This document shows, one piece after another, positions 4,408-38,785 of a DNA stretch of 38,785 bases; within the stretch, counting starts at the first letter, position 1; each line of letters opens with the position of its first letter. The stretch spans positions 1-38,785 of the forward strand of contig JAADYX010000255.1 of the NCBI GenBank assembly GCA_010092885.1, written 5' to 3'. The stretch is from Chloroflexota bacterium. Lineage in GTDB: Bacteria; Chloroflexota; Anaerolineae; Aggregatilineales; UBA3940. The notes beneath the pieces were generated by a model that ran no database searches, had not been told where the DNA came from, and saw nothing but the letters and a program-made list of their open reading frames with translations. The position numbers were made by a program, and so were the translations under genes.

Positions 4408-5900
4408 GGGCTTTACTCAGTGTGTTCGACAAAACCGGTCTGCTCGAGTTTGCTAAAGCCTTGCACGAACAAGGGGTCGATCTGGTTGCCAGCGGTGGCA
4501 CAGGGCGCGTACTGCGCGACGCGGGTCTGTCGGTGACCACGGTCGAGGATCTGACCGGGCTGCCGAGCGTGCTTGGCGGACGGGTCAAGACGCTGCACCC
4601 GGCCATCCACGGCGGAATCCTTGCCCGGGAAGCGGATGCTGATGAGCTGGCAGAGCATGGATGGCAGCCTATTGAGCTGGTGGTGGTGAATCTTTACCCC
4701 TTTGTACAGACCGTCGCTCGGGAAGGGGTTACACAGGCCGAAGCCATTGAACAGATCGACATCGGTGGTGTGGCACTGATCCGGGCGGCTGCCAAGAACT
4801 TCGAACGTGTAACGATTGTCACCAACCCCGAGGACTATGACCAGGTGCTCGCTGAGATCACGGTGGAGGGCAGTACCAGCCAGGGAACACGCCTCGCGCT
4901 GGCCCGAAAAGCCTTCGCACTGACCGCTGCCTATGATGTTGCCATCGCTGACTTTCTTATCGGGCACCAGGAGGGTCTGCCCGAGGCGCTGTCCCTGACC
5001 CTGCCACAGACCATGACCCTGCGCTATGGTGAAAACCCGCATCAGGCTGGTGCGTTGTATGGCCTGCCAGGGGTCGGTCCATTGGGGGGTGAACAGCTAC
5101 AGGGCAAGGCTTTGAGCTACAACAACCTGCTGGATATAGATGCTGCCTGGGCTGCCGCTGAGGACTTCCGCGAACCCGCTGTTGTGATCGTCAAACACCT
5201 CAGCCCGACGGGCATCGCAGTCGGTGACGATCTGCCCCAGGTATTTCAGGCTGCACTCGCCTCTGATCCGGTATCAGCTTTTGGCGGAGTGATCGCCTGC
5301 AACAGGACTGTTGAGGCGGCTATGGTTGAAGCATTCGGCGATCTCTTCATCGAAGGTGTGGCGGCCCCCGATTTCAGTGAGGAGGCGCTGGCTCTGCTTG
5401 CCAAACGCAAGAACTGCCGTGTGCTGCGTATGGCCGATCTGCCCGCGGCTGGTTACGGGCTGCGCTCTGTGCGCGGCGGTGTACTCGCACAGTCCCCAGA
5501 TAGTGACCCCCCTGCCGATTGGCAGGTCGTCACGAAGCGCCAGCCAACCGGCGAGGAGATGCGTGCGATGCGCTTTGCCTGGCAGGCGGTCAAGCATGTG
5601 AAGAGCAATGCTATTGTATTCGCCAAGGGCGAGGCCACTGTTGGCATTGGCGGTGGGCTGCCCAGCCGTGTAGACGCTGTCCGGTTGGCGGCAGCCAAAG
5701 CGGGTGAAAACGCCACAGGGGCGAGCATGGCCTCAGATGCCTTCTTCCCTTTCCCTGATGGGCTCGAAGTCGCGGCGGAGGCTGGCGTGACGGCGGTTGT
5801 GCAGCCAGGCGGCTCGATCCGCGATGAACAGGTCATCACGGCGGCTGACAGGCTCGGGGTGGCCATGTGCTTCACCGGAGTTCGTCACTTCCGTCACTAA
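4404..5900 (+). CDS. purH: Bifunctional AICAR transformylase/IMP cyclohydrolase PurH
   Basis: A 498-residue bifunctional enzyme for the last two steps of purine synthesis. It formylates AICAR with 10-formyl-THF, then closes the ring to IMP. The N-terminal MGS-like cyclohydrolase domain is marked by A-S-G-G-T-G-R and G-R-V-K-T-L-H-P-A-I-H-G-G. The transformylase domain is marked by S-Y-N-N-L-L-D-I-D-A-A-W and the catalytic Lys-His pair in V-K-H-L-S-P-T-G. It is the last gene of the his run. HisHF releases AICAR as by-product, so placing purH here lets the cell return that AICAR to IMP and ATP. No clear terminator follows. A -10-like element begins seven bases after the stop. Confidence 0.96.
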   Translation: MRALLSVFDKTGLLEFAKALHEQGVDLVASGGTGRVLRDAGLSVTTVEDLTGLPSVLGGRVKTLHPAIHGGILAREADADELAEHGWQPIELVVVNLYPFVQTVAREGVTQAEAIEQIDIGGVALIRAAAKNFERVTIVTNPEDYDQVLAEITVEGSTSQGTRLALARKAFALTAAYDVAIADFLIGHQEGLPEALSLTLPQTMTLRYGENPHQAGALYGLPGVGPLGGEQLQGKALSYNNLLDIDAAWAAAEDFREPAVVIVKHLSPTGIAVGDDLPQVFQAALASDPVSAFGGVIACNRTVEAAMVEAFGDLFIEGVAAPDFSEEALALLAKRKNCRVLRMADLPAAGYGLRSVRGGVLAQSPDSDPPADWQVVTKRQPTGEEMRAMRFAWQAVKHVKSNAIVFAKGEATVGIGGGLPSRVDAVRLAAAKAGENATGASMASDAFFPFPDGLEVAAEAGVTAVVQPGGSIRDEQVITAADRLGVAMCFTGVRHFRH

Positions 5901-5906
5901 ACAGGG

Positions 5907-5912
5907 TATAAT
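5907..5912 (+). promoter_or_regulatory. Putative -10 element for the HAD-like gene
   Basis: A perfect TATAAT lies 37 bases before the ATG at 5950, just after the purH stop. No good -35 hexamer lies at 17 bases; a short direct repeat of CGTCACT (5883-5889 and 5892-5898) occupies that place. A start near 5919 would give a leader of about 30 bases. Confidence 0.5.
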
Positions 5913-5949
5913 AGTGATCTCTGCCTGACAACCTGATTGGACTGCCTGT

Positions 5950-7119
5950 ATGGAGAGACACAGCCTCTTCCTATTCGATGTTGATGGCGTCTTGATTTAC
6001 CCGAAGGGCTACAAAGAAGCGCTGATCGCAGCAGTCAACAATGTGGCTGCTCAAATGGATCAGGACCCCATCAACCTGACCTATGAGGAGATCGCCGTAT
6101 TTGAAGCGTGTGGTCTGACCAACGAATGGGAATCGCTTGCGATGTGTGCCGGACTCATGCTGGTGAACGCACTTCAAGCCTATCCCGACCAGATCCGCAA
6201 CACGTTCGCGCTTACTGTGGAGGCCCTGCAGCGGCAGCATATTACACTTAAACGCCCGGACTTTGTAGGGTTCGCACGGCAAGTCAGAGAGAACAACGCT
6301 GAGGGCATGCATCTGGCGCACACGGTGCGGGACATGTTGATCGCCCGGTCACCTTCGCCCGTGCATCCTATCTTGCATGAACTGTTCGACGATGTGTACG
6401 GTATCCATGCCCCGATGACGCGCCTCTTCCAGCACTATACGCTGGGCAGCGAGCGGTTTGAAGAGACCTACGGCACACAATCGGACTTCAAGGTGGCCAG
6501 CTTCCTGCTGCTGCATGATATTCCTCATATCCAATCCGGTGTGCTGGAAGAGTTCCTCAATCGCGACTTTGATGTCTCTATCTACACAACGCGCCCCAGC
6601 CAGCCGCCGGTTGATCTGACCCCTTCGGCGCGTGAACGACTGGATACTGCCAATTACCCGCCTGAGGGGGATCTTGCGGCCGGGCTGCTCGGCGTGTTGG
6701 ATAAAGTTCCGCTGATCGCGGGAGGGCGCATCATGTGGATCGCAGCCCAGCACAAGCGTGATGTGGCTGAATTCCTCAAACCCTCGCCCATACAGGCGCT
6801 TGCGGCTATTGGTGCGGCACTTTCAGCACAGGAGACCGCCGCGTTGGAAGCAGCCGTCGCTTTTTACGATAAGGGTGAAATCAACTGGCCATTGGACCAA
6901 CTGCGTGACCAGCCGACACATATCATTGTCTTTGAAGATTCAGTTGGTGGTATCCGTGCCGTACAGAGCGCGGTGGACCTTCTGCGGAAGGCAGGGCTTG
7001 ATGTGACCGCTCAGAGCATTGGGGTGGCGCCCGAACAGGCCAAGCGCGAAGCATTGGCCGTTGTTGCTGACTATGTGACCGATGACATCAATCTCGCATT
7101 GAGCCCCTACCTGAACTGA
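5950..7119 (+). CDS. HAD-superfamily hydrolase-like protein of unknown function
   Basis: A 389-residue protein that opens with the HAD motif I, F-L-F-D-V-D-G-V-L-I (nucleophile Asp10 and acid/base Asp12), and closes with a motif IV-like stretch F-E-D-S-V-G-G-I-R-A near residues 328-337. Motif II/III candidates are the S/T residues after D-V-S-I-Y-T-T-R-P and a Lys in the middle region. About 180 residues separate motif I from the core of the fold, so the cap or insert is unusually large for a phosphoglycolate-phosphatase-like HAD. The middle contains mostly helical sequence with no family I recognise. The substrate is unknown. It has its own -10 upstream and is separated from the next operon by a T-box leader. 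Confidence 0.75.
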   Translation: MERHSLFLFDVDGVLIYPKGYKEALIAAVNNVAAQMDQDPINLTYEEIAVFEACGLTNEWESLAMCAGLMLVNALQAYPDQIRNTFALTVEALQRQHITLKRPDFVGFARQVRENNAEGMHLAHTVRDMLIARSPSPVHPILHELFDDVYGIHAPMTRLFQHYTLGSERFEETYGTQSDFKVASFLLLHDIPHIQSGVLEEFLNRDFDVSIYTTRPSQPPVDLTPSARERLDTANYPPEGDLAAGLLGVLDKVPLIAGGRIMWIAAQHKRDVAEFLKPSPIQALAAIGAALSAQETAALEAAVAFYDKGEINWPLDQLRDQPTHIIVFEDSVGGIRAVQSAVDLLRKAGLDVTAQSIGVAPEQAKREALAVVADYVTDDINLALSPYLN

Positions 7120-31088: not shown

Positions 31089-31786
31089 ACCAGTCGCCGA
31101 ACCGCTGGCAGCAGGCCCTCGCCGGGATAACAGTGCTGATCGTGGTGGTGACAACAATCGCCGGTGCGCTCCTGCTTGCCCTGAGCGATGATCCTGCGGT
31201 TGTGGGGCAGCGGCCGCCCACAGCAACCCGGATCGTGCTCTCGACTATCGCGCTGCAAACTGCGACGATCACTCCATCGGCTACGCTGACCCCTACGGCA
31301 ACCCCTACGCAGGCGGAAACCGCGACACAGACAGAGACCACCACGGCTACCAACACACACCAGCCCACTCCTCGCCGCCCGACGCACACGCCGCAGCCTA
31401 CTGCCACGCGCGGACTGCCCATCGCCACAACAGGGCCCGGCCCCACGCAGACCACAACCACAACCGATGGGGCATGCAGCTATCCCGGCTCCACCATATA
31501 CGAGCCGCTGCCGGGCGAAATCCTGACGGACATCACGCCGGTAGTTGGTACAGCCGTCTATCCCGATTTTTCCTTCTATAAGTTTGAGATCCGCCCACGC
31601 GGCAGTGACTCGAATGACTATCTAACAGCTGTCACCCGGGAGCAGGCCAAACCAAACCGCAGCATCCTGTGGGAGTTTGACACCCGCGCCTATCCCAACG
31701 GCGACTACTGGCTGCGGTTGGTTGTGGTGGACAGCACCGGCAACTATCCTGAACGCTGTGCGATCCTTATTACCATTCGCAATTAA
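31085..31786 (+). CDS. Membrane-anchored extracellular protein with Thr/Pro stalk and Ig-like domain
   Basis: A 233-residue protein. One membrane helix (about residues 12-33, L-A-G-I-T-V-L-I-V-V-V-T-T-I-A-G) serves as an uncleaved anchor. Residues about 42-125 are a Thr/Pro/Ala-rich stalk, low in complexity and probably extended. The C-terminal domain (about 130-233) has one Cys near each end and the pattern P-x-x-G-E-I-L...G-T-A-V-Y-P-D-F-S-F-Y-K-F-E, like the Ig-like ligand or carbohydrate-contact domains common in Chloroflexota surface proteins. The function is unknown. It overlaps the sensor gene by four bases, so the two are made together and may work together. It is convergent with the next gene. 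Confidence 0.8.
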   Translation: MNQSPNRWQQALAGITVLIVVVTTIAGALLLALSDDPAVVGQRPPTATRIVLSTIALQTATITPSATLTPTATPTQAETATQTETTTATNTHQPTPRRPTHTPQPTATRGLPIATTGPGPTQTTTTTDGACSYPGSTIYEPLPGEILTDITPVVGTAVYPDFSFYKFEIRPRGSDSNDYLTAVTREQAKPNRSILWEFDTRAYPNGDYWLRLVVVDSTGNYPERCAILITIRN

Positions 31787-33690
31787 GATTCTGGCTCGTC
31801 GTCTACGGATTCCTCTTCTTCATCGGTGAACTCATCGTCTTCATAGTATGAGTCCATTTCATCCGCAGCCGGTTCTTGCTCAGCTTCCTCATCATCCAGA
31901 TCGGGGCGGGTTGTTTCCTGCGTGGGGGCCACATTATCCTCGAATGCTGGTGAGCTGTGCTCGCGGGTCTCGTTGGCCTGATGTGTGCCGAGCGCAAAAT
32001 AAACCCCCCCACCTACGATCACAACCGCCCCCAATCCGATCAGGATGTAGGGTGCCGCGGCGTCAAGCCCGGTAGGCTGGAGTTCCTGCTCCAAGGCGTC
32101 AATGCTGACCACATCCGGCGTACTCTCGACAGCAGGTGCGTCCTCGGTTGGCGGCAGTTCAGCAACCGCTTCAGGTGTGGCTGTCGCGTCAGGCTCTGTG
32201 GTGGGCTCAATCTCCTGTTCCTCAGGGTCCTCCGGTGGATCAGTGGGTGCCGGTATTTCGGTAGCCGGTGCTGGCGTGGGCAGCGTGCCACCTTCCGCCG
32301 CGCTGACGGGCAGCACTTCCGTATCGACTGCATCCGGCACCTCCTCAACTAGAAACCATGGATCGCCACCGACAAGGCAGTTGTATACCGGGTCATTGCA
32401 GGTCGCTCCTTCAACGACGATCTGATAGACACCACCCACCGGCTCGACTGTCCAGGTAGTGCCATTGATATCGATCAGGGCTGCTGAGTCACTCCGGGCC
32501 GGGATTGAAAGGGTTGCAGTATCCGCGTCAGTGCGGCCCCAGGCCACATGGACTACCTGGTTTGGATAGGTGAAGCGCACATATTCCACGAATGGGTATG
32601 ATTCTTCATCCACACGGCGGACAAACACCGGGCCACTGGGCAGCAGTTCGGCAGTAAGCTGGTAGCTGAAGTAGGCAGGGCGAACCGTTTCATCCACACG
32701 TACCAAACCAAAGGCCTCGTCGTTGTCAGCCTGCAGATCATCGACGAGCTGGTAAACACTGATCCGTGACGCCTGTGCCGCAAATCCGGTGGCATAGGCC
32801 TGTACGATATAGGCCGCTTGCTGTTCCAGCGTCACATTGGGGAAACGCCCGAACGTCTGATCGTCCGGATAAAGGGGATCATCGGTAGGGCGCAGGTTCA
32901 TCTCGTTGATCCAGACGGGTTTGTCAACAATACCATTCTGGCGCATGATTGCGCCCGGGTTGCTCGCCTGCACGTAGACATCATCGTTGGAACCGGTTGC
33001 ATGCACACTCACCACATCGAAGTAATAGTCATTGGCGGGTGCTGTTGGATCGTCGATCACCTGGCCTATGAACCGCCCAAACCATCCGGGATCGACATAG
33101 GACAGCCCGCCCAGGTGGATCTGTGCGCTGGGGTTCGTCTCCCGGGCGGCCTGATAAGCGATCTTCACCAGTTGATAGTATTCCTCCAGCGACCCGGTCC
33201 AGGTGACACCGACGCGGCTGGCGGGTGTGTCCTGTTCCTCCCAGATCACCCAACGGTTGATGCCGCGCGTACCATAATAGCTCACCGCCTCGCGCACGAA
33301 GTTTGCCCACAGATTCTGTGAATCATCAACGGGCAGGAAGAGTCCGGCGGGCGGTGCGGTCGGGGCTTCACCGTCAGCGGCCCATTCCGGTGTACCAACC
33401 AACACAGCGACTACCTCGCGGTTCGCACTGCGGGCGGCATCCAGCCAAGCGTCGATATCCGGATCGGCCTGCCATTGGTCCGGCCCATCCGGCTGGAGAT
33501 CATCCCAGCGCAGGGTCAGGATCTCCCATCCAGCCCCGGATTGTGCGGCCAGAACGGGGGCGCGATAGGCGTTCACAAGCCCAAAGGCCGGGTTGGGTGC
33601 GGGCCCCTGGGCACCGCTGGATGTGACACTAAAAAGTGTGGCACAGGCCACACAAAGCAGTTGGAGCAGAGTTTTTAGCTTACCCATCAT
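31783..33690 (-). CDS. Secreted, membrane-anchored glycoside-hydrolase-like protein
   Basis: A 635-residue surface protein. It has a signal peptide (L-L-Q-L-L-C-V-A-C-A-T-L-F-S, cleavage near G-A-Q), a TIM-barrel domain (about 32-380) resembling GH39/GH5-type glycosidases, a beta domain (about 385-470), a Pro/Glu/Thr-rich linker (about 480-545), a membrane helix (about 552-572) and a highly acidic C-terminal tail. Candidate catalytic acids are Glu151/Glu152 in W-V-I-W-E-E-Q-D, where clan-A enzymes have W-N-E-P, and Glu263 in V-W-I-N-E-M-N. The Asn before the acid/base is replaced by Glu, so activity needs testing. Starts at 33690 and 33687 are both possible and overlap the epimerase gene end. 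It is the last gene of the recJ run. Confidence 0.8.
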   Translation of the reverse strand: MMGKLKTLLQLLCVACATLFSVTSSGAQGPAPNPAFGLVNAYRAPVLAAQSGAGWEILTLRWDDLQPDGPDQWQADPDIDAWLDAARSANREVVAVLVGTPEWAADGEAPTAPPAGLFLPVDDSQNLWANFVREAVSYYGTRGINRWVIWEEQDTPASRVGVTWTGSLEEYYQLVKIAYQAARETNPSAQIHLGGLSYVDPGWFGRFIGQVIDDPTAPANDYYFDVVSVHATGSNDDVYVQASNPGAIMRQNGIVDKPVWINEMNLRPTDDPLYPDDQTFGRFPNVTLEQQAAYIVQAYATGFAAQASRISVYQLVDDLQADNDEAFGLVRVDETVRPAYFSYQLTAELLPSGPVFVRRVDEESYPFVEYVRFTYPNQVVHVAWGRTDADTATLSIPARSDSAALIDINGTTWTVEPVGGVYQIVVEGATCNDPVYNCLVGGDPWFLVEEVPDAVDTEVLPVSAAEGGTLPTPAPATEIPAPTDPPEDPEEQEIEPTTEPDATATPEAVAELPPTEDAPAVESTPDVVSIDALEQELQPTGLDAAAPYILIGLGAVVIVGGGVYFALGTHQANETREHSSPAFEDNVAPTQETTRPDLDDEEAEQEPAADEMDSYYEDDEFTDEEEESVDDEPES

Positions 33691-34647
33691 GTTCGTCAAG
33701 ATCTTGAAACCAATTCCATGTAGCCTGCAGGCCCTCGCGAATGCTCGTCTGTGGATCGTAGCCGAAAAGGCGGCGCGCCTTGTCCACACTTGCATAGGTG
33801 ATCGGGACTTCGCTGGCGGGTGCCTCAGCGTGTTCGATTGGGGCTTCCCGCCCGGCTATCTCCTGCAGAATATTCACAAAATCGCCGAGCCGGACGGCTC
33901 ACCCCGACCGAGGTTCACAACCTCGTACCCGACAGGTTGGAAGAGAGCCGCTGTTGTGCCAGCGATGATATCGTCAATGTAGGTCCAGTCGCGGAACATC
34001 TCTCCCTCGTCATAGAGCGTGAAGGACTTACCCGTCTGGATGGCACGCATCACGATCCAGGCAATGGTATCCGGGCGGACGCGCGGCCCGTAGACATTGA
34101 AATAGCGCACCGCAGTGATGTTCATGCTGAACATATTGTGATAGGCATGCCCCAACAGCTCGGCTGCTTTTTTGGTGGCCGGATACGGAGCCAATGGCTC
34201 ATTGACGGCCAGCTCCTCGGTGAAGGGTGTGACCGGCGCCTTGCCATAGATCGCCGAGGTGGACGCCATCAGGAAATTCTCTGCCCCGACAGCGCGCGCG
34301 CCATCGAGCATATTGACTGTGCCTTGCACGTTGACTTCAGCATACAAAGCCGCCCGCTCAATCGAGTAGCGGACGTTTGCCATGGCAGCCAGATGGGCCA
34401 CATGCGTCGGGCGATGGTGCTCGAAGACCGCCAGCACTGTGTCGCGATTCCGGATATCGGCTTCAACCAGGGTGAAGTTGGCGTTATCCAGGTGTGGTTC
34501 CACATGCTGGCGTTTGCGCCGGGGACTGTAAAAGTCATTGAAGTTGTCCAGGCAGACTACACAGTGACCCTCCGCCAGAAGGGTATCGATCAGGTGGCTG
34601 CCGATGAAGCCTGCGCCGCCAGTAACAAGCACGGTTGGTTCGCTCAT
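33680..34647 (-). pseudogene. UDP-glucuronate 4-epimerase-like SDR gene with one-base frameshift
   Basis: Two reading frames together encode one complete extended SDR epimerase. The first (34647 down to 33874) has the NAD motif T-G-G-A-G-F-I-G, D-N-F-N-D-F-Y-S-P-R-R-K (typical of UDP-glucuronate 4-epimerases), S-T-S-A-I-Y-G and the catalytic Y-P-A-T-K-K. It runs out as E-V-V-N-L-G-R-G-E-P-S-G-S. Near 33894/33895 one base seems missing. Restoring one G on the minus strand gives G-E-P-V-R-L-G-D-F-V-N-I-L-Q and continues in the second frame to TAA at 33680-33682 (R-L-F-G-Y-D-P-Q-T). The cause may be a true mutation, programmed frameshifting or a sequence error. ATG 34647 has AGAGGAG upstream and overlaps the recJ stop. 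It would convert UDP-glucuronate to UDP-galacturonate. Confidence 0.85.
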
Positions 34648-36347
34648 GGCTCCTCTGAGGGGTGAATGTCCTGGACATTGAGCTGTGGGCGGCGGTGGCC
34701 GTTCCACTCGTTGAGTTCGAGATGATACACGACATTGATCCTATCAGGCAGGCTGTCAGCTTGCTCACCGCGGCGAAAGGCGATTGCATCAGCCCATGCC
34801 CCATTGTCATCGGTGAAGCGCATCTTGAGATGACGCCCTTCCCGGCCAACACGCATGCGTTCGTGAATGCGAACCCCTTCCGTGAGAAACAAAGGCGCCC
34901 TGTTGGCCTCACCGGTCGGCTCTAACTGCTGGAGTGCCTTCACCAACTCATAGCCGGTTTCTACAAGTGGGATCTGCGCATCGATGTGTAATGTGGCCTG
35001 CAGATCCCGCCCGGCGAGCACATCATCGGCGATCTCGGAAAGCCGGTCCTGTAGGGCAGAGAGGTTCTCAGTGCGAACCGTAAAGCCAGCTGCTGCTGCG
35101 TGACCACCATAACGCTCCAGCAGATCATCGCACATCTCAAGCGCACGGGTGATGTGGAATTCGGGGATGCTCCGGCATGAGCCGTGGCTTTCCTCCTCAC
35201 CGATTTGGACCACCACCGAAGGGCGATAATACTGTTCCGTGAGCCGGCTGGCAACCAATCCAACGATGCCCTGCTCAAAGCGTTCATCAGCAGCAAACAT
35301 GAGCGCATCTGCGCCGCCGATATGTTCCTCGGCCCATTTCTGCATGTCGCGTGTCTTCTGCTGGCGTTCCACATTGAGGGCAGAGAGTTCCTCTGCAAGG
35401 GGCATGGCGCGTTTGATATCCGGTGCAGTAAGCAGATCGTAAGCCAGCATGGCGGAACGCAGGCGGCCCGCCGCATTGATCCGTGGGCCGATCACAAAGC
35501 CGATCGTGGTTGCATCTACGCTGCCAGGCCGAACCCGGGCTGCACTGTAGAGGGCCTGCAAACCGGGCCGCTGAGGCCGGTTCAGATTGACCAGCCCACG
35601 TTGAACCAGATCGCGGTTTTCCCCGCGCAGTGACACTATATCCGATACGGTGCCGCCTGCGACCAGATCGAGCCAATCCTCAGGCCGCCACTCATCGATC
35701 CCGCGAATGCCCCGGCGCTGTGCTTCCATGAAGAGGGCCTGTGCCATCTTGTAGGCGATCCCCACCCCGGAGAGGCGTTTTTCCGGATAGTTGTCTTCGG
35801 CACGACGCGGGTTGATCACCGCCAGGGCTGGCGGCAGTTCCGGCCCAATGCTGTGATGATCGGTGACGATCATATCGAGGCCGCTGGCGTTGGCCTCAGC
35901 GACTTCCTCCACGGAGCGGATGCCACAGTCCACTGTGATGACCAGATCGACGCCATCCTCCGCCAGATAGCGCAGTGCCGCTGTGTTCAACCCATAGCCC
36001 TCATCCACCCTGTTGGGGATATAGGCCTGCACATCAGCTCCCACGCGCTGCAGCACTTCCGTCAGCAGAACGGTGGCCGTCACGCCATCGCAATCGAAGT
36101 CGCCGTAGACGGCGATACGTTCTGCATTGCGCACCGCCGTACGGATCCGATAGATGGCATCATCCATGCCCCACAGCCGGAAGGGATTGTCATCTGGCAG
36201 ATAGTGGCCCAGAAACCCGAGGGCGGCTGGCGTATCCACAAAACCCCGATTGTAGAGAACCTGCGCCACAACCGGATGAATATGCTCATTGGCCAGACTG
36301 TTCAGATAGTCTTCGGGAGCCTGCGGGTAGATATGCCAACGCTTCAT
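34644..36347 (-). CDS. recJ: Single-stranded-DNA-specific exonuclease RecJ
   Basis: A 567-residue DHH-family 5'-3' exonuclease used in recombination and mismatch repair. Motif I is Y-G-D-F-D-C-D-G-V-T (Asp83, Asp85, Asp87), motif II V-T-V-D-C-G (Asp140), motif III V-T-D-H-H (163-165) and the DHHA1 motif Y-G-G-H-A-A-A-A-G-F. A C-terminal OB-fold region follows. The length fits the family. ATG 36347 gives M-K-R-W, near the usual RecJ start; ATG 36359 is an alternative adding four residues. Neither has a clear ribosome-binding site. Longer readings run into the divergent glycosyltransferase gene. The stop overlaps the epimerase start (ATGA). Confidence 0.95.
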   Translation of the reverse strand: MKRWHIYPQAPEDYLNSLANEHIHPVVAQVLYNRGFVDTPAALGFLGHYLPDDNPFRLWGMDDAIYRIRTAVRNAERIAVYGDFDCDGVTATVLLTEVLQRVGADVQAYIPNRVDEGYGLNTAALRYLAEDGVDLVITVDCGIRSVEEVAEANASGLDMIVTDHHSIGPELPPALAVINPRRAEDNYPEKRLSGVGIAYKMAQALFMEAQRRGIRGIDEWRPEDWLDLVAGGTVSDIVSLRGENRDLVQRGLVNLNRPQRPGLQALYSAARVRPGSVDATTIGFVIGPRINAAGRLRSAMLAYDLLTAPDIKRAMPLAEELSALNVERQQKTRDMQKWAEEHIGGADALMFAADERFEQGIVGLVASRLTEQYYRPSVVVQIGEEESHGSCRSIPEFHITRALEMCDDLLERYGGHAAAAGFTVRTENLSALQDRLSEIADDVLAGRDLQATLHIDAQIPLVETGYELVKALQQLEPTGEANRAPLFLTEGVRIHERMRVGREGRHLKMRFTDDNGAWADAIAFRRGEQADSLPDRINVVYHLELNEWNGHRRPQLNVQDIHPSEEP

Positions 36348-36388
36348 AATGGGGATCATGCTAACATACATAAGTGCCCGACGCCATA

Positions 36389-36397
36389 TGTTATAAT
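36389..36397 (+). promoter_or_regulatory. Extended -10 promoter giving a probable leaderless mRNA
   Basis: TGT-TATAAT is a perfect extended -10 (TGN at 36389-36391, TATAAT at 36392-36397) with no good -35. The ATG of the glycosyltransferase begins at 36405, about where transcription should start, leaving no room for a ribosome-binding site. Confidence 0.6.
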
Positions 36398-36404
36398 CGC
36401 GTTC

Positions 36405-37520
36405 ATGCGTATGCTCGCCGCCACAGGCATCTTCCATCCGGAGCCAGGAGGCCCTTCGACCTATCTGCGCGCTTTCCTGCCTGAGTGGCAGGCACGTGGC
36501 CATGAGGCGCAGGTCCTCACGTTCGGCGAGGGGCCTGTCGACATCTATCCCTACCCTGTCAGTCGCGTCAGCCGCCGCGGACCTTACCCGCTGCGCCAGT
36601 GGCGGTATTTTGAGCGGGCACGCCAGCTGTGGCCCGACCACAATTTTGCCTTTGTGCACAGCTTGGGCGTCCCTTTGCCTCGCTCGCTGCATCCTCGAGT
36701 CGGTAAGGTGGTTGGGGATCAGGCGTGGGAACGCGCTATGAACCGAAGTTGGGTTCCTCCTGATACTGATGTCGATGATTTTCAGACAGCCTCTTACCAA
36801 AATCCTCTGATTGATGTAAGCCGCCGCATACGCAGCAGGCGTGCGCAGAACTACGATCATGTGATTGTGCCCAGCGAATACCTCAAGCGTATGGTTCAGG
36901 GTTGGGGTGTGCCAGAGGAACGGATCACTGTGATCTATAATGCGCTTAATCATGGGGGCGAATCGGTGGCAGGTGCTCATCTGCCGGAGGGATTCCCGGC
37001 ATCTGAGGGGCCCGTTGTGCTCGCGGTGGCGCGGTTCACACCATGGAAGAATCTGCATATGATCATTCAGGCAGTTGCACGCCTGCCGGACGTTACTCTG
37101 ATCATCGCAGGCGACGGCCCCCTGCACGCAAGCCTGGTAGCACAAATCGAACAACATGCTCTCGGCGAAAGAGTTCATCTGGTTGGGCGTATACCGCGAG
37201 AGTACATGCCTGGGGTATATCAGTCGGTGGATATGACCGTCTTGTACTCCAGTTATGAGGGACTGTCACATGTTCTGCTAGAATCTCTACAGGCGGGCAC
37301 GCCCGTCGTTGCCAGCGACAAGGGAGGCAATCCGGAGGTTGTGCGCCATGAAGAAAACGGTCTGTTGGTCCCGTACCCCTCGGTGGAGGCGCTGACCGTG
37401 TCAATCCAACAGGCGCTTGACCAACACGACCGGCTGGCAGCCGGGACTCATATCGGGATGGAACGCTTTAGTTGGGAGCACATGGTGGAACAAACAATTG
37501 CATTATTGGAGCAATTCTGA
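36405..37520 (+). CDS. Glycosyltransferase family 4 protein
   Basis: A 371-residue GT-B glycosyltransferase that transfers a sugar from a nucleotide-sugar donor with retention. The N-terminal acceptor loop is F-H-P-E-P-G-G-P-S-T-Y. The donor domain begins at V-L-A-V-A-R-F-T-P-W-K-N-L. The E-x7-E motif is in S-S-Y-E-G-L-S-H-V-L-L-E-S-L, followed by G-T-P-V-V-A-S-D-K-G-G-N-P-E-V-V. The acceptor is unknown. ATG 36405 lies eight bases after a TATAAT and is probably translated from a leaderless message; ATG 36411 is an alternative. The stop shares a base with the PTPS-like start (TGATG), so the pterin-enzyme gene is coupled to it. Confidence 0.93.
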   Translation: MRMLAATGIFHPEPGGPSTYLRAFLPEWQARGHEAQVLTFGEGPVDIYPYPVSRVSRRGPYPLRQWRYFERARQLWPDHNFAFVHSLGVPLPRSLHPRVGKVVGDQAWERAMNRSWVPPDTDVDDFQTASYQNPLIDVSRRIRSRRAQNYDHVIVPSEYLKRMVQGWGVPEERITVIYNALNHGGESVAGAHLPEGFPASEGPVVLAVARFTPWKNLHMIIQAVARLPDVTLIIAGDGPLHASLVAQIEQHALGERVHLVGRIPREYMPGVYQSVDMTVLYSSYEGLSHVLLESLQAGTPVVASDKGGNPEVVRHEENGLLVPYPSVEALTVSIQQALDQHDRLAAGTHIGMERFSWEHMVEQTIALLEQF

Positions 37521-37900
37521 TGTATGAACTGGCTGTACAGCGTGATTTTGTCGCGCAGCATTTTCTGGTTGGTGGGGACTGGGGCCCCGAGAACGAGTGG
37601 CATTCACACCACTACCGGGTAGAGGTGTGCTTCACTGCTGACGAGCTCGATCAGCATGGCTATCTGGTTGACATCGTGGATGTGGAGCAGAATCTCGATG
37701 AGATGGTAGCTGGCTACAAGGACAAGACCCTCAACGACCTGCCGGACTTTGATGGTCTAAACCCCAGCATTGAGCATTTCTGCCGGATTTTTTGCGTGGG
37801 TATGGACGAACGGCTTGACGCACCGAACATCACGACGATCAAGGTGACCATCTGGGAGAACGATATCGCCTGGGCAGCGTACCGGCTGGAGCGTGATTGA
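37520..37900 (+). CDS. 6-pyruvoyl/6-carboxy-tetrahydropterin synthase-family protein (PTPS-III-like site)
   Basis: A 126-residue member of the PTPS/QueD T-fold family. The zinc histidines are His14 (F-V-A-Q-H-F), His28 and His30 (W-H-S-H-H-Y). The middle G-Y-L-V-D-I-V-D-V matches the V-x-D-F family strand, and N-P-S-I-E-H-F the N-P-T-x-E-N helix. Four residues before the first H of H-x-H, where QueD and PTPS have the catalytic Cys, stands Glu24 (E-N-E-W-H-S-H). Glu at this place is the mark of PTPS-III enzymes, which make 6-hydroxymethyl-dihydropterin. The true substrate is unproven. ATG 37520 has GGAG at 37508-37511. It lies between two glycosyltransferases with one- and four-base overlaps, so a pterin-like glycoside or another modified product is possible. 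Confidence 0.88.
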   Translation: MYELAVQRDFVAQHFLVGGDWGPENEWHSHHYRVEVCFTADELDQHGYLVDIVDVEQNLDEMVAGYKDKTLNDLPDFDGLNPSIEHFCRIFCVGMDERLDAPNITTIKVTIWENDIAWAAYRLERD

Positions 37901-38785
37901 GGGCTGCGTTTGTTGTCTATGGTGATCTGGATATCGTCTCTGGCGGCTATATCTATGATCGGGCTATAGCAGACCAACTGAGCACGGCAGGGCATCACGT
38001 TGAAGTCATCGGGCTGCCTTGGCGAACGTATGGCGAACATCTGCTAGACAACCTTAAACCGGGCTTGCTGCGCAGTATGGCTATCCCCGGTTATGATGTC
38101 ATTATCCAGGATGAACTCAACCATCCCTCGCTCTTCTTGCTCAACCGGTGGTTGAAGCCGCGTATTGATGCACCTGTCATCAGTATTGTGCATCATCTAC
38201 GTGCCAGTGAACATCGCCCGACCTGGCAGAATCGCCTCTACCGTTTGCCCGAACATCTCTATCTACGGTCGGTGGACGCGTTTATCTACAACAGTCAGAC
38301 CACCCGGCAGATCGTTGAAGCGGTTGTGCAGCGGCCCGGAATTGTCGTCTATCCTGCAGGTGACCGCGTTCAGACGAACATCACGCCCCAGCAAATCGAA
38401 GCGCGCGCCCATACCGCCGGTCCCCTGCGGGTCTTGTTTGTGGGCAATCTCATCCCGCGCAAAGGACTGCACACCCTCATAGACGCGCTTGCCCAACTCC
38501 CCACAGAAAGCTGGCATCTGACCGTGATCGGGAACGAGGATGCGGATCCCGCGTATGCCCATGCCATCCACCGGCAGGTCGCGCAGGTTGGAGTGGAAGC
38601 GTCTGTGCGGTTTGCCGGACGGCTGCTTGATACAGCGCTGATTGCTGAGTTTTTGGCAGCGCATCTGTTGGCGGTGCCCTCCACGTATGAGGGATTCGGC
38701 ATCGTCTATCTTGAGGCGATGGGGGCCGGGCTGCCCGCGATTGGGTCAACAGCAGGCGCGGCGCATGAGATTATCACTGATGGTG
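37897..38785 (+). CDS. Glycosyltransferase family 4 protein (3' end outside window)
   Basis: At least 296 codons remain open to the window edge. It starts at TTG 37897, overlapping the PTPS-like stop as TTGA. The N-terminus R-A-A-F-V-V-Y-G-D-L-D-I-V-S-G-G-Y-I-Y-D is the glycine-loop of GT-B enzymes. The donor domain starts at V-L-F-V-G-N-L-I-P-R-K-G-L. The E-x7-E motif lies in S-T-Y-E-G-F-G-I-V-Y-L-E-A-M, followed by G-A-G-L-P-A-I-G-S-T-A-G-A. It is a second GT4 enzyme with a different acceptor region from the one at 36405. Together with the PTPS-like gene it forms a tightly coupled cluster that continues beyond the window. Confidence 0.9.
   Translation, partial: MRAAFVVYGDLDIVSGGYIYDRAIADQLSTAGHHVEVIGLPWRTYGEHLLDNLKPGLLRSMAIPGYDVIIQDELNHPSLFLLNRWLKPRIDAPVISIVHHLRASEHRPTWQNRLYRLPEHLYLRSVDAFIYNSQTTRQIVEAVVQRPGIVVYPAGDRVQTNITPQQIEARAHTAGPLRVLFVGNLIPRKGLHTLIDALAQLPTESWHLTVIGNEDADPAYAHAIHRQVAQVGVEASVRFAGRLLDTALIAEFLAAHLLAVPSTYEGFGIVYLEAMGAGLPAIGSTAGAAHEIITDG

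What the first reader, a model, noticed from the sequence alone, without database searches (positions are those of the whole stretch)
36405..38785. Glycosyltransferase - PTPS-like - glycosyltransferase cluster: possible glycosylated pterin pathway
Two different GT4 enzymes flank a pterin-family T-fold enzyme with one- and four-base overlaps. Glycosylated pterins are known in cyanobacteria. This tight coupling in a different setting suggests an uncharacterised pathway, perhaps a pterin glycoside or a pterin-derived cap on a polysaccharide. The cluster continues past the window.
Basis: inference. Interest (0 to 1): 0.6.

Follow-up and report, generated by a model that had tools for sequence, protein, structure and literature searches.

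The report
Split gene set, possible glycosylated pterin
Two of the three genes flagged here (a pterin-enzyme relative and the sugar-transferase after it) belong to a gene set shared by many bacteria and salt-loving archaea that probably builds a sugar-tagged, methylated pterin from GTP, a product nobody has yet identified; the third gene is an unrelated neighbour.

Summary
The trio exists as described: GT4-A 36405-37520, PTPS-like 37520-37900, GT4-B 37897-end, with overlaps of 1 and 4 bases. The window is a whole contig of a Chloroflexota MAG, so nothing can be read beyond 38785. GT4-A is an order-wide gene (46/61 genomes, against 3/61 for the PTPS) that sits beside recJ in a relative lacking the PTPS. 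PTPS plus GT4-B is a real unit: 73 of 80 related loci keep them adjacent. In the 38 loci with ample flanks they lie with a GTP cyclohydrolase II (RibA, 27), a RibD_C reductase (29), a BchC-like dehydrogenase (31) and a methyltransferase (32). The order dehydrogenase-PTPS-GT4-methyltransferase recurs in haloarchaeal, Streptomyces and Thiodictyon plasmids. In the window's genome the missing genes lie together on contig C407. This is not a polysaccharide cluster, queuosine or F420 synthesis; a folate role is not favoured. The PTPS keeps the zinc histidines and pterin-anchoring Glu but has Glu where QueD has its catalytic Cys. Best reading: a GTP-derived, glycosylated, methylated pterin (inferred). 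The RibA/RibD_C neighbourhood of PTPS-IV was already published; the product is unknown. New variant of a known kind.

The parts
37520..37900 (+). PTPS-like T-fold enzyme, 126 aa; the only PF01242 gene in the genome; zinc triad H14/H28/H30, pterin-anchor E113, E24 in place of QueD's catalytic Cys
   Evidence: AlphaFold2 pLDDT 93.3; nearest solved structure SCO6650 3d7j
37897..38785 (+). GT4-B, the pathway's own retaining-type GT4 glycosyltransferase (truncated by the contig end); N-terminal SGGYIYDR and EX7E (EGFGIVYLE) motifs
   Evidence: neighbour of the PTPS in 73 of 80 loci; 42-46% full-length identity to haloarchaeal counterparts
36405..37520 (+). GT4-A, neighbouring GT4 glycosyltransferase; probably not part of the pathway although its stop overlaps the PTPS start
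   Evidence: present in 46/61 order relatives, nearly all without the PTPS; recJ-GT4-A order kept in G001 without the PTPS
34644..36350 (-). recJ, divergent neighbour; marks the resident synteny block into which the pair has come

Best explanation
The PTPS-like gene and GT4-B are two of at least six genes of a widespread, uncharacterised pathway that most likely makes a glycosylated, methylated pterin from GTP. In this genome the pathway is split: PTPS and GT4-B here, and RibA, RibD_C reductase, dehydrogenase, methyltransferase and a flippase-like membrane protein on contig C407. Shown: gene content, linkage, conservation and residues. Inferred chemistry: RibA opens GTP to the 2,5-diamino-pyrimidine; RibD_C reduces its ribosyl to ribityl; with no deaminase the 2-amino group of a pterin is kept; the BchC-like zinc-free dehydrogenase oxidises the 2'-hydroxyl so that the ring can close to a 7,8-dihydroneopterin-phosphate-like pterin without GTP cyclohydrolase I; the zinc PTPS, with Glu at the catalytic position, trims or isomerises the side chain, perhaps to 6-hydroxymethyl-dihydropterin; GT4-B adds a sugar; the methyltransferase methylates sugar or pterin.
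For: In the 38 loci with >=6.5 kb on both sides: GT4-B 35, methyltransferase 32, dehydrogenase 31, RibD_C 29, RibA 27. Same order dehydrogenase-PTPS-GT4-methyltransferase in haloarchaeal plasmids, Streptomyces and Thiodictyon; dehydrogenase-PTPS-methyltransferase with RibA and RibD in Palleronia. In G000 the sole GCH II sits with RibD_C, dehydrogenase and methyltransferase on C407. RibA occurs in 4 of 61 order genomes, two of the three PTPS carriers among them, and G000 lacks RibB, so this RibA is probably not for riboflavin. RibA metal Cys and Tyr105 kept in 49/49; 38 fused RibA-RibD_C, none with a deaminase motif; dehydrogenase zinc ligands all replaced. PTPS: H14, H30, E24, E113 in 81/81, H28 in 80/81. 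A known pteridine glycosyltransferase, CtPGT of Chlorobium, is described as GT-1/AviGT-4-like (PMC5683033).
Against: No product or enzyme activity is known. G000 has GTP cyclohydrolase I, so a second route to pterin looks redundant unless pools are kept apart. The dehydrogenase has lost the usual catalytic zinc, and its nearest solved relatives (sorbitol dehydrogenase and others) match weakly, mostly over the C-terminal half. CDP-alcohol phosphatidyltransferase and flippase genes near many copies suggest a membrane or lipid step that this reading leaves out. In the actinobacterial PTPS the third zinc histidine is Ala, so the PTPS step may not be the same everywhere.
Confidence: 0.5

Rival explanations
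1. Lipid-linked variant: the pathway makes a head group (pterin- or pyrimidine-derived) that a CDP-alcohol phosphatidyltransferase joins to a lipid and a flippase-like protein moves across the membrane.
For: CDP-alcohol phosphatidyltransferase beside the set in 15 of 80 Chloroflexota loci, G005, Streptomyces, Haloarcula, Natronorubrum and Thiodictyon; flippase-like LPG_synthase_TM gene directly before RibA in G000 and G006.
Against: Found in under a quarter of the full-flank loci (8 of 38); no such gene was seen near the set in Palleronia, Haladaptatus or Halomicrococcus.
Confidence: 0.17
2. The product is not a pterin but an open diaminopyrimidine or other heterocycle made from the RibA/RibD_C product, with the PTPS fold recruited for another reaction.
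For: The catalytic Cys and the Asp-His pair of QueD are not kept; the actinobacterial copies also lack a zinc His.
Against: The pterin-anchoring Glu is invariant in 81/81 and in every outgroup row; the absence of a deaminase preserves the pterin 2-amino group.
Confidence: 0.15
3. The PTPS-like enzyme works in folate synthesis in place of FolB (PTPS-III type) and its neighbours are incidental.
For: G000 has FolE and no FolB; Glu replaces the QueD Cys, as in PTPS-III.
Against: FolB is also absent from many order genomes without this PTPS, and PTPS-bearing G005 has FolB. Glu is at -4, not at the -3 position of ExxHGH (PMC5041015). It does not explain the linked dehydrogenase, GT4 and methyltransferase.
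Confidence: 0.08
4. PTPS-IV enzymes work in F420 synthesis (mentioned as unpublished in PMC5041015).
For: RibA and RibD products are also F420 precursors; G000 has the F420 ligase family.
Against: F420 ligase in 55/61 order genomes, this PTPS in 3/61. F420 synthesis, from general knowledge, needs no dehydrogenase, GT4 or methyltransferase of this kind.
Confidence: 0.03
5. An ordinary exopolysaccharide cluster with a stray queuosine or folate gene.
For: Two GT4 genes side by side; a nucleotide-sugar dehydrogenase and an epimerase elsewhere in the window.
Against: The PTPS follows GT4-B and a fixed gene set across phyla; QueD score 43 against a cut-off of 89; GT4-A is independent of it.
Confidence: 0.02

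Closest known systems
PTPS-IV (COG0720 subfamily; cluster 62 of AGeNNT, PMC5445326), including SCO6650 of Streptomyces coelicolor (PDB 3d7j)
   Same: Neighbourhood with PF00925 (RibA) and PF01872 (RibD_C); best sequence and fold match 3d7j; same dehydrogenase-PTPS-GT4-methyltransferase order in Streptomyces
   Different: FGPAQ signature absent (WGPEN here); all three zinc His kept, whereas Streptomyces-type copies have HGA; forms its own clade with haloarchaeal copies (100/99)
QueD, PTPS-I
   Same: T-fold, zinc triad, pterin-anchoring Glu
   Different: CxxxHGH not met (E24 in place of Cys, HSH for HGH); QueD cut-off not reached; QueD controls L150-L153, L156 and L157 showed none of the pathway genes nearby
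Pterin glycoside synthesis (cyanobacterial cyanopterin and biopterin glucoside; Chlorobium CtPGT)
   Same: A glycosyltransferase acting on pterins; CtPGT is GT-1/AviGT-4-like (PMC5683033)
   Different: The known systems were not compared by sequence here; RibA, RibD_C and the dehydrogenase are not known parts of them (general knowledge)
Streptomyces GTP cyclohydrolase II variant (SCO6655; Spoonamore 2006, recalled)
   Same: RibA-family gene near the same gene set
   Different: Chloroflexota copies keep Tyr105 (49/49) and lack a creatininase nearby; the S. fungicidicus copy has Met there and a creatininase-family gene beside it

Membership tests
PTPS-IV | Signature FGPAQ | tested here: not met
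   WGPEN in the window; W21 and E24 81/81 in the group. FGPA[QT] with HGH occurs in Chloroflexia copies having the same neighbours
PTPS-IV | Neighbours RibA (PF00925) and RibD_C (PF01872) | tested here: met
   27 and 29 of 38 full-flank loci; in G000 itself on another contig, C407
PTPS-IV | Common ancestry with the FGPAQ group, apart from QueD | tested here: inconclusive
   Three well-supported groups, unrooted
QueD / PTPS-I | CxxxHGH motif and QueD family cut-off | tested here: not met
   E24 at the Cys position, HSH; 43.3 bits against 89.25
PTPS-III (folate) | ExxHGH | tested here: not met
   N25 at -3, E24 at -4; HSH
Zinc PTPS fold | Three zinc His and the pterin-anchoring Glu in a T-fold | tested here: met
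   zinc binding itself not tested
F420 synthesis | Occurrence with F420 genes | tested here: not met
   F420 ligase 55/61, PTPS 3/61
Exopolysaccharide cluster | PTPS neighbours are polysaccharide genes | tested here: not met
Pterin glycoside pathway | A glycosylated pterin product | not testable with these tools
   needs metabolite analysis

The most novel reading that the evidence does not exclude
A cross-domain pathway makes a new class of methylated pterin glycosides, possibly lipid-anchored, through a GTP cyclohydrolase II route (RibA, RibD_C, zinc-free dehydrogenase) that forms the pterin ring without GTP cyclohydrolase I.
Probability: 0.25. Interest if true: 0.8.

Novelty: new variant of a known kind. 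Interest (0 to 1): 0.5.

Why it matters
PTPS-family genes are widely annotated as queuosine or biopterin enzymes, and one subfamily (PTPS-IV) has had no published function that I could find in the held literature. The gene set defined here, shared by bacteria and archaea and naming a specific glycosyltransferase, dehydrogenase and methyltransferase, makes that function directly testable by expressing about six genes. If the inferred chemistry holds, it would be a second route from GTP to pterins and a new family of pterin glycosides outside the phototrophs in which they are known.

Tried and rejected
Reading past 38785: impossible, the contig ends. Literature on SCO6650/6655 under several spellings: no held paper describes the locus; Pribat 2009, Phillips 2012, Spoonamore 2006 and the SCO6650 structure paper (DOI recalled, may be wrong) are not held. 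Rejected after test: EPS cluster, queuosine, F420; folate not favoured. GT4-A as a pathway member rejected. The promoter/terminator scan of the end region gave two promoter-like sites against 1.5 expected, nothing useful. RibA of G002 is an ordinary RibBA in a riboflavin operon and was not counted as a pathway gene.

Full report
What is in the window. The window is an entire contig (C163) of a 4.06 Mb Chloroflexota MAG (93% complete, 431 contigs), so GT4-B is cut by the contig end. The PTPS-like gene is the only PF01242 gene in the genome.

GT4-A does not belong. A search of 61 genomes of the order finds GT4-A at E<=1e-40 in 46 (best relatives about 50% identical, usually one copy), while the PTPS is in three. 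In G001, which has no PTPS, the block kinase-31085-recJ-GT4-A is kept as in the window, with a glmU-like ORF after GT4-A (that name is read from the N-terminal sequence only). In G004 and G005 the PTPS is followed by GT4-B without GT4-A. The tight trio is therefore a local juxtaposition; translational coupling in this one genome remains possible.

PTPS and GT4-B are a unit. Of 80 loci kept from a scan of species genomes (474 relatives), 73 have a GT4-B homologue beside the PTPS; of the other seven, L059, L070 and L078 end at the contig end. GT4-B is 42-46% identical over full length to its haloarchaeal counterparts and 26-30% to those of Chloroflexia and Palleronia, with a shared N-terminal [ST]GGxxY motif that GT4-A lacks; GT4-A aligns to it over only half its length.

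The wider gene set. Clustering of neighbours and counts in the 38 loci with at least 6.5 kb on each side give GT4-B 35, methyltransferase 32, dehydrogenase 31, RibD_C 29, RibA 27, flippase-like 11 and CDP-alcohol phosphatidyltransferase 8. Dehydrogenase-PTPS-GT4-methyltransferase recurs in Natronorubrum, Haladaptatus, Halomicrococcus, Streptomyces and Thiodictyon. Haloarcula and Halobellus have dehydrogenase-PTPS-methyltransferase with no GT4 beside the PTPS; Palleronia has RibA-dehydrogenase-PTPS-methyltransferase-RibD with a GT4 about 4 kb upstream. One Streptomyces copy (L107) stands alone. These are the best-scoring loci, largely Caldilineaceae and other Anaerolineae, so the counts are not independent. 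A survey of 400 Chloroflexota genomes is bimodal: 30 genomes score at least 169 bits, all other matches 83 bits or less.

The rest of the pathway in this genome. The only GCH II in G000 is on C407, in the order flippase-like, RibA, RibD_C, dehydrogenase, with the methyltransferase divergent. G005 and G006 have comparable loci. RibA occurs in 4 of 61 order genomes, and one of these, G002, is an ordinary riboflavin operon. G000 lacks RibB, so its RibA is probably not for riboflavin.

Residues and structure. Over 81 sequences H14, H30, E24, N25 and E113 are invariant and H28 is 80/81; haloarchaeal copies keep HSH and E24; the Streptomyces, Thiodictyon, Palleronia and Arthrobacter copies have FGPAQ-type sequence and Ala for the third zinc His. 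The placing of E24 opposite QueD's Cys rests on spacing from the HxH motif, since the pairwise alignment leaves a gap there. The model is a confident T-fold (pLDDT 93.3) closest to SCO6650. RibA keeps its three metal Cys and Tyr105 in 49/49, whereas the S. fungicidicus copy has Met at 105 and a creatininase-family neighbour; from memory, a Tyr-to-Met change in SCO6655 makes the enzyme stop at the formyl intermediate, which a creatininase-family deformylase could then process. The dehydrogenase has lost all four zinc-site residues of sorbitol dehydrogenase and scores best, below cut-off, against BchC.

Rivals. F420: ligase in 55/61, PTPS in 3/61. Folate: FolE present and FolB absent in G000, but FolB is also missing from many genomes without this PTPS and present in G005, which has it. 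Queuosine: motif and family cut-off not met. EPS: contradicted by the neighbourhood. Lipid linkage stays open.

Known and new. AGeNNT (PMC5445326) had already noted PF00925 and PF01872 next to PTPS-IV (561 sequences, FGPAQ). Chloroflexia-type copies here carry FGPA[QT] with HGH beside RibD_C, dehydrogenase and/or GT4, which links the window's divergent WGxEN...HSH group to PTPS-IV by context, though the tree leaves the three groups unresolved. In the held literature I found no account of the full set or its product; most subscription papers are not held.

Noticed in passing
order relatives G000-G060: F420 ligase family in 55 of 61 genomes but RibA in only 4 of 61: how the others would make the F420 precursor, or what the ligase does there, is unclear.
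   Followed up: no
36392-36397: TATAAT seven bases before the GT4-A start codon: possibly a leaderless transcript.
   Followed up: no
L155:2058-2450 and 5329-6612: Two nearly identical PTPS ORFs in one Chloroflexota locus, the second in a longer open frame.
   Followed up: no
31783-33795: 670-aa protein with no Pfam or NCBIfam match; the sequence looks secreted and glycoside-hydrolase-like.
   Followed up: no
L088, L100: RibA Tyr105 to Met goes with a neighbouring creatininase-family gene in Streptomyces; Tyr goes with none in Chloroflexota.
   Followed up: partly
L060, L068, L079: Close copies of the PTPS/GT4-B pair in MAGs labelled Desulfomonile, Deltaproteobacteria and Binatota: transfer or misbinning.
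   Followed up: no
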